A stretch of DNA of 64,000 nucleotides from an uncultured Lachnospiraceae bacterium (GTDB taxonomy: Bacteria > Bacillota > Clostridia > Lachnospirales > Lachnospiraceae), in NCBI GenBank assembly GCA_947567595.1, contig CANOMQ010000011.1, positions 1 through 64,000 of the forward strand. The letters are read 5' to 3'. The notes below the pieces were generated by a model. The model searched no databases. It saw nothing but the letters and a program-made list of their open reading frames with translations, and was not told the DNA's origin. The position numbers and the translations under genes are program-made. This document shows, one piece after another, positions 2,328-5,841 of this stretch (its first letter is position 1; each line of letters opens with the position of its first letter).

Positions 2328-3368
2328 ATGGAGATTGGGAAGGTAATCAGGACATATCGAAAAAAGAAGGAACTGACGCAGGAGGAGATGGCGAGCAGGC
2401 TGGGTGTCACGACGCCTGCAGTCAATAAGTGGGAGAAGGGCGTCTCACAGCCGGATATTGGGTTGCTTGCGCCGATTGCCCGGCTGCTGGATATCTCATT
2501 GGATGAATTGCTATCATTTCATGAAGAACTTTCCGATGAGGAAATTAATGCGATTATCAAGGAGCTTGATGCGAAGCTGGAAACGGAGACTTATGCTGCG
2601 GTTTTTCAGTGGGCAGAAAACATATTGCATGAATATCCAAACTGTAATCAGCTTATTTGGCAGGTTGCACTTGTTTTGGATGTTGGACGCATGAGAAGGA
2701 AAGCAGAAAATACAGAGCAGTACGCGGAGCCCATTAATCGCTATTATCAAATGGTACTGGAGGATGAAAACCCGCAAGTACAGAAGAACGCAGCAGATTC
2801 GCTGTTTGGGTTTTATGTCAGAAAAGGGGAATATGATAAAGCGGAGACATATTTGCAGTATTTTTCAGAAGATGATCCAATACGCAAATTGAAGCAGGCG
2901 GAAATTTATAGACATAAGGGAATGGAAGCGGATGCCTGTAAGCTGTATGAACAGCTACTGTTTTCGGGATATCAGATTTTAAATCAAGTCCTAAGTGTAT
3001 TTTACTTATTTTCAATGGAAAAAAAAGACTATGTGAGGGCAAAAGCATATTTGGATAAGCAAAGCGAAATGGCGCGGACGTTTGAGATGGGAAGGTACAA
3101 TGAAGTATCGGGATATCTTGACTTTGCCGTCAGTCAAAAGAATGTGGGGGAAACGATTCAAATTATAAAAGAAATCATGTCGAGCGTGGAAACGATAGAA
3201 GATTATGCAAAATCGTTTTTGTTTGAGCATATGGGCTTTCGGCAGGTAGAGCAGTCTTTTTATGATAAGATTAAAAGGAATTTGCTGGACTGTTTTAAAA
3301 ATGATGAAAGTCTTGCGTATATGAAAGGATGTGAGGAGTGGGCGCGGATTTTGGAAGGGGAGGATTAA
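2328..3368 (+). CDS. XRE-family transcriptional regulator with TPR-like C-terminal region
   Basis: Probable DNA-binding regulator of 346 residues. The N-terminal 65 residues are a Cro/CI-type helix-turn-helix: IRTYRKKKELTQEEMA, then the recognition helix around TTPAVNKWEKG and SQPDI. The remainder (about residues 80-340) is predominantly helical with repeated aromatic and charged helices, reminiscent of the TPR sensor half of many Firmicute XRE regulators, which often bind peptides; ligand and targets are unknown. The start at 2328 is chosen because AGGGAGG lies 8-14 bases upstream; a longer frame back to 2238 lacks a ribosome site and would overlap the promoter. It stands alone, downstream of the ileS terminator and convergent with the Abi gene. 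Confidence 0.8.
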   Translation: MEIGKVIRTYRKKKELTQEEMASRLGVTTPAVNKWEKGVSQPDIGLLAPIARLLDISLDELLSFHEELSDEEINAIIKELDAKLETETYAAVFQWAENILHEYPNCNQLIWQVALVLDVGRMRRKAENTEQYAEPINRYYQMVLEDENPQVQKNAADSLFGFYVRKGEYDKAETYLQYFSEDDPIRKLKQAEIYRHKGMEADACKLYEQLLFSGYQILNQVLSVFYLFSMEKKDYVRAKAYLDKQSEMARTFEMGRYNEVSGYLDFAVSQKNVGETIQIIKEIMSSVETIEDYAKSFLFEHMGFRQVEQSFYDKIKRNLLDCFKNDESLAYMKGCEEWARILEGED

Positions 3369-3404
3369 CATTCGCTGATTGTTTGGTGTATATTGTAGGT
3401 ACTC

Positions 3405-4343
3405 TTATCGTTTATATCGGGTAATATTCTCCCAATTTTGTGGAAATCCCATATGTTTCAGCAATTCTGATTTTGTTAATCTGTTGCTGGATTTAAAATA
3501 TTGTTTTATGATACACACAAGATTTTTCTTAAATGTTAAAAAATCGTTTTGGGGCAAAAGGTACCGGAATGCAATGACTAAGCTGAACAAATCCCTTTTT
3601 CCATAAATATACTGTGTTCCAGTCTGCGGGATATTTAATTTTTTATGTAATATTGTATTTGGTATTTCAGAATGTGCATAGGCGGAGAATAATCTCTCAT
3701 TATGGGCACAGATATTTCGGAACATAACAAGGACTTTCAGATATTGTTCCAATTCTCTTTCATTCACATTGATAAAGTTATGGCTGACCTTGCTTCTGAT
3801 ATGATGGCTGGACAAAGCATATAAATTTGATATATTACCCATAGTCAAAGCATTGACTAAAATTTTTAAAGGAACATTTCCTTTTATGATTCTATGGTGA
3901 TTGATATAGGCATGCTGTGTGTTGTGAATGGTATTTTGCAAAATCGTAATGAGTTTGTTGATTTTTGGTACATTTTTGGGAGTGTTATTATAGTTATTGA
4001 TTTTTAAATACTCGGATTGGCTGTTCCCAAAAGTCTCTGTAAATGCATATGCAATCGAAACTGCTATTTTTCGTTCAACTTGGCATAAATAAGGAAGAAA
4101 CAATTTTTTTAACTGCACATCGAACTGATATAGGGAATAAATGTCTTCAAAAGTGGTACTGTTGATAAATTGTCTTGTATTGGTATCTATAAAAGGTGAC
4201 TTATAGCCTCCTATGATGTTGAAATACCCATATTCCTTTAAAATGGTTTCTGCAAATTGTGTATCGTTGATGATTAAATGCTTGTCGTTTTTTAACTTAT
4301 TGATTAATTGCTGATTGGTTTGGAATGCTTCAATGATAGCCAT
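3405..4343 (-). CDS. Abi_2 (AbiD/AbiF-like) HEPN abortive-infection protein
   Basis: A 312-residue protein of the Abi_2 family, known from lactococcal phage-abortive systems and related to HEPN ribonucleases. The N-terminal region has the family YGYFNIIGGYKSPF-type motif (about residues 38-51) and the centre carries R-N-I-C-A-H (Rx4H), the catalytic signature of HEPN RNases, followed by NERLF. The length is usual for the family. GC content is clearly lower than in its neighbours, suggesting acquisition. It is transcribed alone, and just upstream lies a separate short transcription unit (promoter plus hairpins plus terminator, 4364-4466). AbiF-type genes are known to be associated with a structured upstream RNA, so a toxin/RNA pair is inferred. 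Target RNA and trigger cannot be read from the sequence. Confidence 0.8.
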   Translation of the reverse strand: MAIIEAFQTNQQLINKLKNDKHLIINDTQFAETILKEYGYFNIIGGYKSPFIDTNTRQFINSTTFEDIYSLYQFDVQLKKLFLPYLCQVERKIAVSIAYAFTETFGNSQSEYLKINNYNNTPKNVPKINKLITILQNTIHNTQHAYINHHRIIKGNVPLKILVNALTMGNISNLYALSSHHIRSKVSHNFINVNERELEQYLKVLVMFRNICAHNERLFSAYAHSEIPNTILHKKLNIPQTGTQYIYGKRDLFSLVIAFRYLLPQNDFLTFKKNLVCIIKQYFKSSNRLTKSELLKHMGFPQNWENITRYKR

Positions 4344-4363
4344 AATATGATACCTCTTATAGT

Positions 4364-4431
4364 AAAAAAGAGAACCCCGCAGGGCTCTCCCTCGGTCTCA
4401 GGCATCTCAAGTTTCTGAAACCTTATCCATT
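4364..4431 (-). ncRNA. Short structured RNA upstream of the Abi_2 gene (abiF-RNA-like candidate)
   Basis: Between the Abi_2 start and an upstream promoter lies a roughly 68-nt unit. It folds into an 8-bp stem (GGUUUCAG at 4422-4415 with CUGAGACC at 4401-4394, one G-U) with a 13-nt loop, then a GC-rich 8-bp terminator stem (GAGAGCCC / GGGUUCUC, loop UGCG, 4389-4370) followed by six U. Transcription from the promoter should therefore end about 20 bases before the Abi_2 ATG. Seen: promoter, stems and U tract. Known: an abiF RNA motif occurs upstream of such genes. Inferred: this is an example, possibly an RNA antitoxin. The alternative is a leader attenuator controlling read-through into the gene. 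Confidence 0.65.
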
Positions 4432-4437
4432 AGTTAG

Positions 4438-4466
4438 AATATAACAATAAAAAACAATTTTGTCAA
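4438..4466 (-). promoter_or_regulatory. Strong sigma-A promoter of the Abi-linked RNA
   Basis: On the minus strand: consensus TTGACA (4466-4461), exactly 17-bp spacer, TATATT (4443-4438). The predicted start is near 4431. The near-consensus strength contrasts with the immediate terminator downstream and suggests that the short RNA itself is the main product. Confidence 0.75.
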
Positions 4467-4554
4467 TCATTTTTTATTCGTTTTCTAACCACTTATATTA
4501 TATGCAGTAACAGCGCTGTCATGCATAATTGAATGTGCAAAAATGATTTGATTG

Positions 4555-5841
4555 TTACATCGTAGTTTCCACCCCATTTAAGTTAACATGCTCATTTTCT
4601 TCCATCGGAATCAGCAGATACTTCTGACCATCTATGGTCTGCGCCTTGACCTGCTGCGCTTTATCCGGTTTCATGCGCAGAAAGACCTCCGCCCAGTTTT
4701 TCGCCTCCTCGGGGTCTAGCGGTGCCTCCATTTTTACAAGTGTTTCAATCTGTTCTGCCTTTTCCAAATTTTCCTGCTTGAGCGTGGCAACTTCCTCAAG
4801 CAGCTTAAATTCTTTCTTTTCTTTATTGTTCTTCTCAATCGCCTTCTCATTCACAAGGTTTCGCACCGCAGGCGGCTGGTCGCTGAATTCTTCCGTGATA
4901 TGGCTCTGAATTAGAGCAACGGTAGCGTCAGGAATTTCTTTGTCGGAAAGTACATCTTTTATCATTTCCGCAGTCAGCGTCAACTCCTCCGGCTCAAGCA
5001 CGACCAAATCCTCCATCGCAGCCTCATGTTCTTCTACAATATCATTCAACTTTTCCTGAATATCAATCAGCATTCCATCGCTGTCCTCAATAATCGGGGC
5101 AATGGCGGATTTGACAATGCTGCCAAACGCATTCTGCTCCTCCGTCGCCGTGCGCTTTGCGCCGCACCCAAGCGCCGTTTCAATAAAATCCCTGTGCGAG
5201 TCCTTTGCGTCGCGTACATAGTATGTAAGTGAGTGGACATCAGCGGAGCGCTCCGCAAATGACGGAAACAGAAATCCCACGTCGGGCATTCCGACCACCC
5301 TGTCCTGAATGCGCACGCCGATACGGTTCTCGTCCTCACGGTAGCCAAGCCCCGGCTTGGAGAGATTGACAGGGCAGATGGCGCATAGAAGGTAGTCAAA
5401 AACTTCCTCTGACTCGTCGATTTTCAGGTCGTCATTCGTCTTTGTCATCACGTCGTAGGCGTCATGGAAAATTAAAATCAGATAGTTTCCGACGTAATCA
5501 TAATTTTCAATAATCATATCGTACAAATGTTCAAGAAGCTCGGGATTTTTCAGACCGCTCTCGCGCAGCCCGAGCAGGTATTGCTGCCGTCCGCCGCTTT
5601 CCTCTTCGCTTTTTTCGAATTTAAGTTCAAGCAGATTGTTGCCAATCGTGCCGGAAAGCGCCTTTTTTGCAATATCCAGATATTTGTAAAATTCCGCGTC
5701 GTCTAAATTCAGGAACGTTTCGTTCAGCTCCACGACTTTATTTTTATTCGAGTCCACATAACAGCCGCACATGCGCGTGATGGTGCAGGATTCTTTTTTG
5801 AAGCGGCGTTTTAGCTCTAAGATGTCACGGTTTCTAAGCAT
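4555..5841 (-). CDS. DUF4317 family protein
   Basis: A 428-residue soluble protein matching the DUF4317 family of Clostridia (N-terminus MLRNRDILELKRRFKKE, then CGCYVDSNKNK). No signal peptide, membrane segment or recognised catalytic motif is visible. The C-terminal third is a charged, helical, partly coiled-coil stretch (about residues 325-380) after an acidic segment. The family has no assigned function as far as I know. It is a single gene oriented with pyrG, with 214 bases between the two; the ribosome site AAAGGAGG precedes the ATG. Confidence 0.75.
   Translation of the reverse strand: MLRNRDILELKRRFKKESCTITRMCGCYVDSNKNKVVELNETFLNLDDAEFYKYLDIAKKALSGTIGNNLLELKFEKSEEESGGRQQYLLGLRESGLKNPELLEHLYDMIIENYDYVGNYLILIFHDAYDVMTKTNDDLKIDESEEVFDYLLCAICPVNLSKPGLGYREDENRIGVRIQDRVVGMPDVGFLFPSFAERSADVHSLTYYVRDAKDSHRDFIETALGCGAKRTATEEQNAFGSIVKSAIAPIIEDSDGMLIDIQEKLNDIVEEHEAAMEDLVVLEPEELTLTAEMIKDVLSDKEIPDATVALIQSHITEEFSDQPPAVRNLVNEKAIEKNNKEKKEFKLLEEVATLKQENLEKAEQIETLVKMEAPLDPEEAKNWAEVFLRMKPDKAQQVKAQTIDGQKYLLIPMEENEHVNLNGVETTM

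What the first reader, a model, noticed from the sequence alone, without database searches (positions are those of the whole stretch)
3405..4466. Abi_2/HEPN gene with its own short promoter-hairpin-terminator RNA
A near-consensus promoter (TTGACA, 17 bp, TATATT) drives a predicted ~68-nt RNA with two stems and a terminator ending ~20 bases before the Abi_2 start. The protein keeps the HEPN Rx4H motif (RNICAH). A short, strongly transcribed RNA next to an RNase-like abortive-infection protein fits an RNA-protein toxin pair of the AbiF type, related to the ancestry proposed for Cas13. Seen: promoter, stems, motif. Known: abiF RNA motif. Inferred: antitoxin role.
Basis: partly seen in the sequence, partly recalled or inferred. 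Interest (0 to 1): 0.8.

Follow-up and report, generated by a model that had tools for sequence, protein, structure and literature searches.

The report
RNA-guarded toxin with sporulation promoter
A gut bacterium carries a toxin gene guarded by a small RNA of a family not in the RNA catalogue, and in spore-forming relatives that RNA has a second, sporulation-type promoter, which suggests that the guard has to be kept up while the cell makes a spore.

Summary
In detail: a near-consensus promoter (4466-4438, minus), a ~69-nt two-hairpin RNA ending in a terminator, and an Abi_2/HEPN gene (RNICAH). The RNA is not the Rfam abiF motif. It belongs to a separate family, unmatched in Rfam 15, with strong covariation (16 pairs, 97.6% paired, 0/500 shuffles). 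Of 32 close homologues in a 299-genome sample, 31 have it just upstream and one just downstream; 30 more RNA copies have no full toxin matched beside them. In the tree it goes with one toxin clade. An AbiF-type RNA-protein toxin pair is well supported, though untested at the bench.

The -10 element stands at 30 of 33 loci in genomes with spoIVA and 1 of 12 without (p=4e-7; 2 of 12 and 5e-6 if a distant match counts). Likely mechanism: it keeps the RNA antitoxin supplied in sporulating mother cells, and the hairpin insulates the longer transcript. Exceptions exist (three loci, one locus). Start-site mapping in sporulating cells would decide.

The parts
3405..4343 (-). Abi_2 / AbiD-F family HEPN gene, 312 aa (predicted toxin)
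   Evidence: Pfam Abi_2 2.6e-40; PADLOC AbiD 2e-55; phmmer to PbAbiF 8vz6_A 3.8e-11; NCBIfam none
3702..3719 (-). RNICAH, the HEPN R-x4-H motif (residues 209-214)
   Evidence: R, N, C, A, H invariant in 30 of 30 aligned
4353..4358 (-). AAGAGG, likely ribosome-binding site of the gene
   Evidence: read from sequence
4362..4431 (-). short RNA (R1 family), about 69 nt, predicted antitoxin
   Evidence: R1 model hit 4362-4434, 65.8 bits (the window is one of the 36 sequences the model was built from); covariation
4394..4422 (-). hairpin H1: 8 bp, 13-nt conserved loop
   Evidence: seven of its pairs are paired in 36 of 36 sequences
4366..4393 (-). hairpin H2 with T run: terminator, conserved CCTGCGGG-like tip
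   Evidence: 95.7% of cells paired
4438..4466 (-). sigma-A type promoter of the short RNA (TTGACA-17-TATATT)
4431..4491 (-). H0: self-complementary stretch that spans the sigma-A promoter; would be the 5' hairpin of a longer transcript (arm GTTAGAA pairs with TTCTAAC)
   Evidence: z -6.27; arm test; fold of 4493-4360
4496..4505 (-). GCATATAATA, -10 of the second promoter P_up, 10 of 10 to RCATAWAMTA
4518..4524 (-). GCATGAC, -35-like element of P_up at the family position (only 4 of 7 to KMATATT here)

Best explanation
It is an RNA-protein toxin-antitoxin pair of the AbiF kind. The Abi_2 protein is a HEPN RNase-like toxin. The abundant short RNA from the sigma-A promoter folds into H1 and H2, binds the toxin and silences it, and H2 ends most transcription before the gene, so that the toxin is made only by read-through. 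In spore-forming hosts a second promoter of the mother-cell sigma type, 60-100 nt upstream, makes a longer form of the same RNA when sigma-A transcription gives way to sigma-E/K; its extra 5' part folds into the hairpin H0 and so leaves H1 and H2 free. Shown by computation: homology, the HEPN motif, covariation, co-inheritance, promoter elements, self-folding of the extension, and the link of the second promoter to spoIVA. Inferred: transcription, binding, toxicity, the sigma factor, and the purpose of the second promoter.
For: RNA: 16 pairs, 97.6% of cells paired, 12 pairs with changes on both sides, 0/500 shuffles (the structure came from the same alignment). Pairing: of 32 homologues with at least 190 bits, 31 have R1 just upstream, 1 just downstream. 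Tree: 40 of 40 R1 rows in one 41-row group (support 91/91, not starred), RF03085 rows elsewhere. Second promoter: RCATAWAMTA at 9 or more of 10 in 33 of 46 RNA copies at toxin loci, 5.2 expected, at most 9 in 50 shuffles; KMATATT at one offset, 4.35 of 7 against 3.46 at the next best, 0/1000 shuffles. Arms: 6.23 against 4.26 (sd 0.18) when partners are swapped, 0/2000. Folding: mean z -2.81 (n=33) against -0.27 (n=29) for flanking stretches. Sporulation: 30 of 33 against 1 of 12 loci, p=4e-7; per genome 28 of 31 against 1 of 10, p=5.7e-6, composition does not explain it. Insulation: H1 probability 0.89 with the real extension, 0.68 with shuffled ones, p=3e-7.
Against: No expression, binding or toxicity data. 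Exceptions: L019, L020 and L004 lie in spoIVA genomes without a 9-of-10 element, L039 has one in a genome (a MAG) without spoIVA; L012 has a 9-of-10 match at -116, outside the range that I set after seeing the positions (counted: 2 of 12, p=5e-6). The window's own -35 is weak (4 of 7). spoIIID promoters of the same family match the consensus too (11.5 against 10.1 shuffled) but mostly with 14 nt, not 13 (11 of 14). H1 is lost in the long form in L041 (0.32) and L008 (0.00). The KMATATT consensus is recalled.
Confidence: 0.65

Rival explanations
1. The RNA is only a cis-acting leader: an attenuator whose terminator is opened by a signal such as a phage protein, as proposed for lactococcal abiD1, and not an antitoxin that acts in trans.
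For: The terminator lies directly before the gene. For AbiD1 a structured 5' UTR and a short prematurely ended transcript are described (passage in PMC12373285). The two roles can coexist: RCd22 does both (same paper).
Against: H1 and its loop are as conserved as the terminator and not needed for termination. 30 of 73 strong RNA copies have no toxin match beside them, and in L007 the RNA lies downstream of the toxin gene.
Confidence: 0.15
2. The second promoter serves to switch on the toxin in the mother cell, for mother-cell death or for defence of sporulating cells, and not to supply the antitoxin.
For: Same promoter evidence. Reading through H2 would give toxin mRNA.
Against: Both transcripts pass through the same terminator, and the extension is folded so as to leave H1 and H2 intact.
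Confidence: 0.2
3. The self-complementary stretch is a DNA operator or cruciform for a regulator and is never transcribed as a whole.
For: It covers the sigma-A promoter from -35 to +1.
Against: The arms differ freely between loci while staying complementary (0/2000), arm spacing varies widely, and the first arm begins about where a transcript from the upstream -10 would start. A regulator site would be conserved in sequence.
Confidence: 0.1
4. The upstream element is a chance AT-rich match or an ordinary second sigma-A promoter.
For: AT-rich flanks (69% and 65% AT).
Against: Chance gives 2.5 of 33 and 0.75 of 12; TTGACA is not enriched at any offset, its best mean being 2.38 of 6; the C of CATA is kept in 29 of 32.
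Confidence: 0.08

Closest known systems
AbiF-RCd22 of C. difficile prophage phi027 (PMC12373285)
   Same: Abi_2 protein with an RN-C-AH motif (RNQCAH there, RNICAH here), RNA from a SigA promoter directly upstream, terminator before the gene; there shown toxic and neutralised by direct RNA-protein contact.
   Different: RCd22 has two RF03085 motifs and is 88-132 nt; here one hairpin of another family plus the terminator hairpin. No second, sporulation-type promoter is described in what I saw of that paper.
PbAbiF-AbiFr (PDB 8vz6; Zilberzwige-Tal et al. 2025, seen only through PMC12737573 and PMC12373285)
   Same: Homologous protein (E=3.8e-11); one RNA per monomer inhibits the RNase, as reported there.
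Rfam abiF RNA, RF03085
   Same: Same place before Abi_2 genes; found in 21 of 299 genomes of the same family (E<=0.01, 6 over the cut-off).
   Different: 37 nt, 6-bp and 3-bp stems round an asymmetric loop, against 7-8 bp with a 13-nt loop and a separate terminator hairpin. Goes with other toxin clades.
Type III toxin-antitoxin systems (ToxIN, AbiQ, CptIN, TenpIN)
   Same: Structured RNA antitoxin upstream of an RNase toxin, with a terminator between.
   Different: Toxin fold differs (HEPN, as the C. difficile paper says); the RNA is a single copy here, tandem in L016 only.
C. difficile type I antitoxin RNAs with SigA and SigB promoters (PMC6563280, passages)
   Same: An antitoxin RNA with a second promoter for another sigma factor.
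   Different: SigB and antisense RNA there; mother-cell sigma type and protein-binding RNA (inferred) here.

Membership tests
[quoted passage not shown]
   PF07751 139.1 bits, cut-off 25.6
[quoted passage not shown]
   RNICAH; invariant in 30 of 30
[quoted passage not shown]
abiF RNA RF03085 | Match to the covariance model | tested here: not met
   No match in the window at gathering cut-offs nor at E up to 10 in 3300-4800; none in L001, L018, L027, L036, L057, L058 at E up to 1
AbiF-type RNA-protein toxin-antitoxin pair | Conserved structured RNA beside the toxin gene | tested here: met
AbiF-type RNA-protein toxin-antitoxin pair | Toxicity relieved by direct RNA binding | not testable with these tools
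   needs expression and binding assays
Type III toxin-antitoxin (ToxIN-like) | Tandem repeats in the antitoxin RNA | tested here: not met
   single copy in the window; two upstream copies only at L016 among the loci searched
Mother-cell (sigma-E type) promoter | -10 of CATA...T type with a fixed-distance ATA-type -35 | tested here: met
   family level; -10 boxes CATATTAT and CATATAAT and the ATA -35 are given for C. difficile (PMC3789822 passages). Window alone: -10 10 of 10, -35 only 4 of 7
Mother-cell (sigma-E type) promoter | Found in spore-formers, absent from non-spore-formers | tested here: met
   30 of 33 against 1 of 12 loci, with four exceptions and L012 told above
Mother-cell (sigma-E type) promoter | Transcription depends on SigE | not testable with these tools
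   needs start-site mapping in wild type and sigE mutant

The most novel reading that the evidence does not exclude
An RNA antitoxin has acquired its own developmental promoter: spore-forming hosts of this AbiF clade transcribe the antitoxin from a mother-cell sigma promoter as well, with a co-evolved self-folding 5' extension that keeps the antitoxin fold intact, because a cell that changes its RNA polymerase during sporulation would otherwise free the toxin. Lineages that lost sporulation lost both promoter and hairpin.
Probability: 0.55. Interest if true: 0.82.

Novelty: new variant of a known kind. Interest (0 to 1): 0.72.

Why it matters
It adds an RNA family that Rfam lacks to the toxin pairs from which Cas13 is thought to descend, and shows that related toxin clades are held by different RNAs. 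It also makes a general question testable: how a cell addicted to a short-lived RNA survives a developmental switch of sigma factors. If the reading is right, the structure of the antitoxin gene records whether its host still sporulates.

Tried and rejected
Rfam abiF as the identity of the RNA: rejected. Atu_C8 (18.8 bits, cut-off 50): chance. The unanchored arm test gave only a modest signal (6.05 against 5.46, sd 0.18, largest of 200 permutations 6.0; orphans none, 4.93 against 5.00); the anchored test is the strong one. H0 upstream of other Abi_2 leaders: not seen (mean z -0.40, n=26 of which four are R1 loci, start guessed from a crude tag). P_up pattern before other Abi_2 clades: weak (12.4 against 11.8 shuffled, n=40); L176, L185 and L202 have GCATATA(A/C)TA in or near their own promoter, a lead only. 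RNA copies as a mobile unit: considered because several orphans lack the promoter and because L007, L008, L026 and L058 have copies after the gene; not pursued. spoIVA and spoIIID as a first look for sigma-E boxes in the own genome gave no clear spoIVA promoter.

Literature: no paper in the listings (best rows only) links AbiF or its RNA with sporulation; PMC7438776 says that a few C. difficile ncRNA starts have sporulation-type promoters (passage), so the idea of such promoters before ncRNAs is not new.

Full report
THE OBSERVATION. On the minus strand, TTGACA-17-TATATT lies at 4466-4438, followed by a stretch that folds into an 8-bp hairpin and a 12-bp hairpin with a T run (z -4.40, 0 of 200 shuffles), then AAGAGG and the ATG of a 312-aa gene at 4343. 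Pfam calls the protein Abi_2 (2.6e-40), PADLOC AbiD (2e-55), NCBIfam nothing. By sequence it is related to PbAbiF, PDB 8vz6 (3.8e-11). The genome has one such gene and one such RNA (a second row at E 9 is chance).

THE RNA IS ITS OWN FAMILY. Rfam 15 has no match in the window, and at E up to 10 only weak chance rows. The abiF model works: it finds the phiC2 leader (37.6 bits). Upstream of homologues the same RNA recurs. In 36 aligned RNAs 16 pairs are 97.6% paired; 12 pairs have changes on both sides; no shuffle of 500 reaches any of the five measures, and sliding the partner by one column drops pairing to 62% or less. The structure was taken from the consensus of the same alignment, which favours it in the slid control. 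H1 has seven pairs paired in 36 of 36 sequences; its loop keeps C26, G29, G31 and G34 in all 36.

PAIRING WITH THE TOXIN. In 299 genomes of the host's family (probably Lachnospiraceae, judged from the titles) 76 have a protein match and 76 an RNA match at E<=0.01. Of 32 homologues with 190 bits or more, 31 have the RNA just upstream; the other, L007, has it just downstream. One of the 32 has a stop inside. One search lists 101 RNA places; I took the 73 best (32 bits or more) and left out 28 under 29 bits. Of the 73, 43 lie near a protein match and 30 do not. Of these 30, three have a toxin fragment by tblastn (L096, L108, L109), L099 and L100 begin like a toxin by eye, and L100 and L120 run into contig ends, so they cannot be judged fully. 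At other loci the toxin is broken but the RNA intact (L017, L035, and several pieces in L042 and L043; L039). Toxin lost and RNA kept is what a toxin and its antitoxin should show; the reverse was not seen in the close group. R1 occurs in 15 of 196 genomes of the order (ten in the host's family, five in two others) and 4 of 299 in the phylum sample, one of them weak.

ONE CLADE, ONE RNA. In a tree of 86 Abi_2 proteins the 40 R1 rows fall in one group of 41 (support 91/91, below the starred level; the 41st, L174, is a long branch). RF03085 rows sit in another, starred, group of 26. Other clades have yet other promoter-hairpin-terminator leaders (read). In the same 299 genomes RF03085 is found in 21 (6 over its cut-off), not in the host.

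A SECOND PROMOTER. Motif search upstream of the RNA gave GCATATAMTA (8.45 bits against 6.4-6.8 in eight shuffled sets). RCATAWAMTA at 9 of 10 or better stands at 33 of 46 RNA copies at toxin loci, 5.2 expected and at most 9 in shuffles, and at 10 of 30 orphans. An ATA-type -35, KMATATT (recalled sigma-E consensus), peaks at a single offset, 13 nt before CATA: 4.35 of 7, next best 3.46, 0 of 1000 shuffles; TTGACA peaks nowhere (26 loci). I had seen the column make-up before choosing the pattern, but the test scanned all offsets. C. difficile mother-cell promoters have -10 boxes CATATTAT and CATATAAT and an ATA -35 for SigE, AC for SigK (passages of PMC3789822). Promoters of spoIIID in 18 genomes of the family fit the same pattern (mean 11.5 of 15, shuffled 10.1, largest of 40 sets 10.6), with 14 nt of spacing in 11 of the 14 whose -10 begins with CATA.

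THE PREDICTION THAT HELD. If this is a sporulation promoter it should follow sporulation. I listed 31 R1 genomes from the promoter result and then searched spoIVA: 23 have it; the eight without are G298, G135, G002, G084, G193, G206, G261 and G190. spoIIID agrees: none of the eight has a match over the cut-off (five spoIVA genomes have only split matches). A second set of 34 followed. Over 45 toxin-associated loci the -10 element is present in 30 of 33 with spoIVA and 1 of 12 without (p=4.0e-7; per genome 28 of 31 and 1 of 10, p=5.7e-6). The range -105 to -48 was set; counting L012's match at -116 gives 2 of 12, p=5.0e-6. Left out: L033 (near-copy of L032), the phage records L057 and L058, the second copy at L008, G130 and G174. 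Three further loci with broken toxins, read later, gave 10, 8 and 10 of 10. Base composition does not explain it (AT 69% and 65%, p=0.13; chance 2.5 of 33 and 0.75 of 12), and the sigma-A promoter is alike in both groups (9.85 and 9.42 of 12, p=0.21). On the tree the losses are scattered: L206 against L023, L024 against L022/L205, L012/L013 against L003-L005, L015/L203 against L034-L038, L006 against L009-L011, L007 against L001 are six separate contrasts in the expected direction (my reading; L007/L001 is weakly supported). Against: L019, L020, L004 (spoIVA, no 9-of-10 element) and L039 (element, no spoIVA in its MAG).

THE INSULATING HAIRPIN. Just after the upstream -10, where a transcript would begin, lies an arm complementary to the stretch between the sigma-A -10 and the RNA start. 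The arms differ from locus to locus but match their own partner: 6.23 against 4.26 with swapped partners, 0 of 2000 (31 loci). The whole stretch folds better than shuffles (mean z -2.81, n=33, near-copies included; flanks -0.27, n=29; window -6.27). In a fixed window the mean is -1.54 at toxin loci and -0.28 at orphans, -2.05 with spoIVA and -0.23 without (p=7e-4). In five near relatives it has two pairs changed on both sides and four broken cells. In the long form H1 keeps a probability of 0.89, against 0.68 with shuffled extensions (p=3e-7), and the extension pairs with itself (0.58 against 0.37) and not with the RNA (0.05 against 0.14); 29 rows, L008 twice; H1 fails in L041 and the first L008 copy.

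MECHANISM. By analogy with RCd22, which binds AbiF and whose terminator also limits the gene (PMC12373285: abstract, passages, section 12, first part of the discussion), the short RNA holds the toxin. A short-lived RNA from a sigma-A promoter would run down when the mother cell changes sigma factor; a mother-cell promoter would cover the gap, and H0 would keep the added 5' end from spoiling the fold. The host has spoIVA and spoIIID. All of this is computation. Odds: AbiF-type pair about 0.85; sporulation promoter about 0.7; its purpose as antitoxin supply about 0.55.

NOVELTY. The system kind is known. The RNA family is not in Rfam 15, and no paper in my listings names a sporulation promoter for AbiF; the main comparative paper on AbiF RNAs (Cell 2025) was not held, so the RNA family may be described there.

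Noticed in passing
L007 2139-2210; L008 2456-2528; L058 1318-1390; L026 35-98: R1 copies directly downstream of the toxin gene; in L007 it is the only copy and a 398-aa gene (DUF1016-like by eye) follows.
   Followed up: partly
L101 and L107, RNA 2001-2072: In two genomes a lone R1 copy is followed by the same gene, a zeta-toxin-like ATPase by eye, with a short reading frame between.
   Followed up: no
L016 244-309 and 312-383: Two R1 copies in tandem before one toxin gene.
   Followed up: no
L163-L164, L165/L172/L178, L167/L175, L181/L182/L191/L194, L185/L190 (upstream of the Abi_2 genes): Several further leader types with promoter, hairpin and terminator before other Abi_2 clades, apparently distinct from R1 and RF03085.
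   Followed up: partly
L093, L097, L101, L106, L107, L111, L112: Lone R1 copies without a recognisable own promoter; in L093, L097 and L112 they stand 10-25 nt after the end of an unrelated reading frame.
   Followed up: no
window 4555-5841 (-) and 2328-3365 (+): Neighbours are a DUF4317 gene and a helix-turn-helix gene; no defence island was looked for.
   Followed up: no
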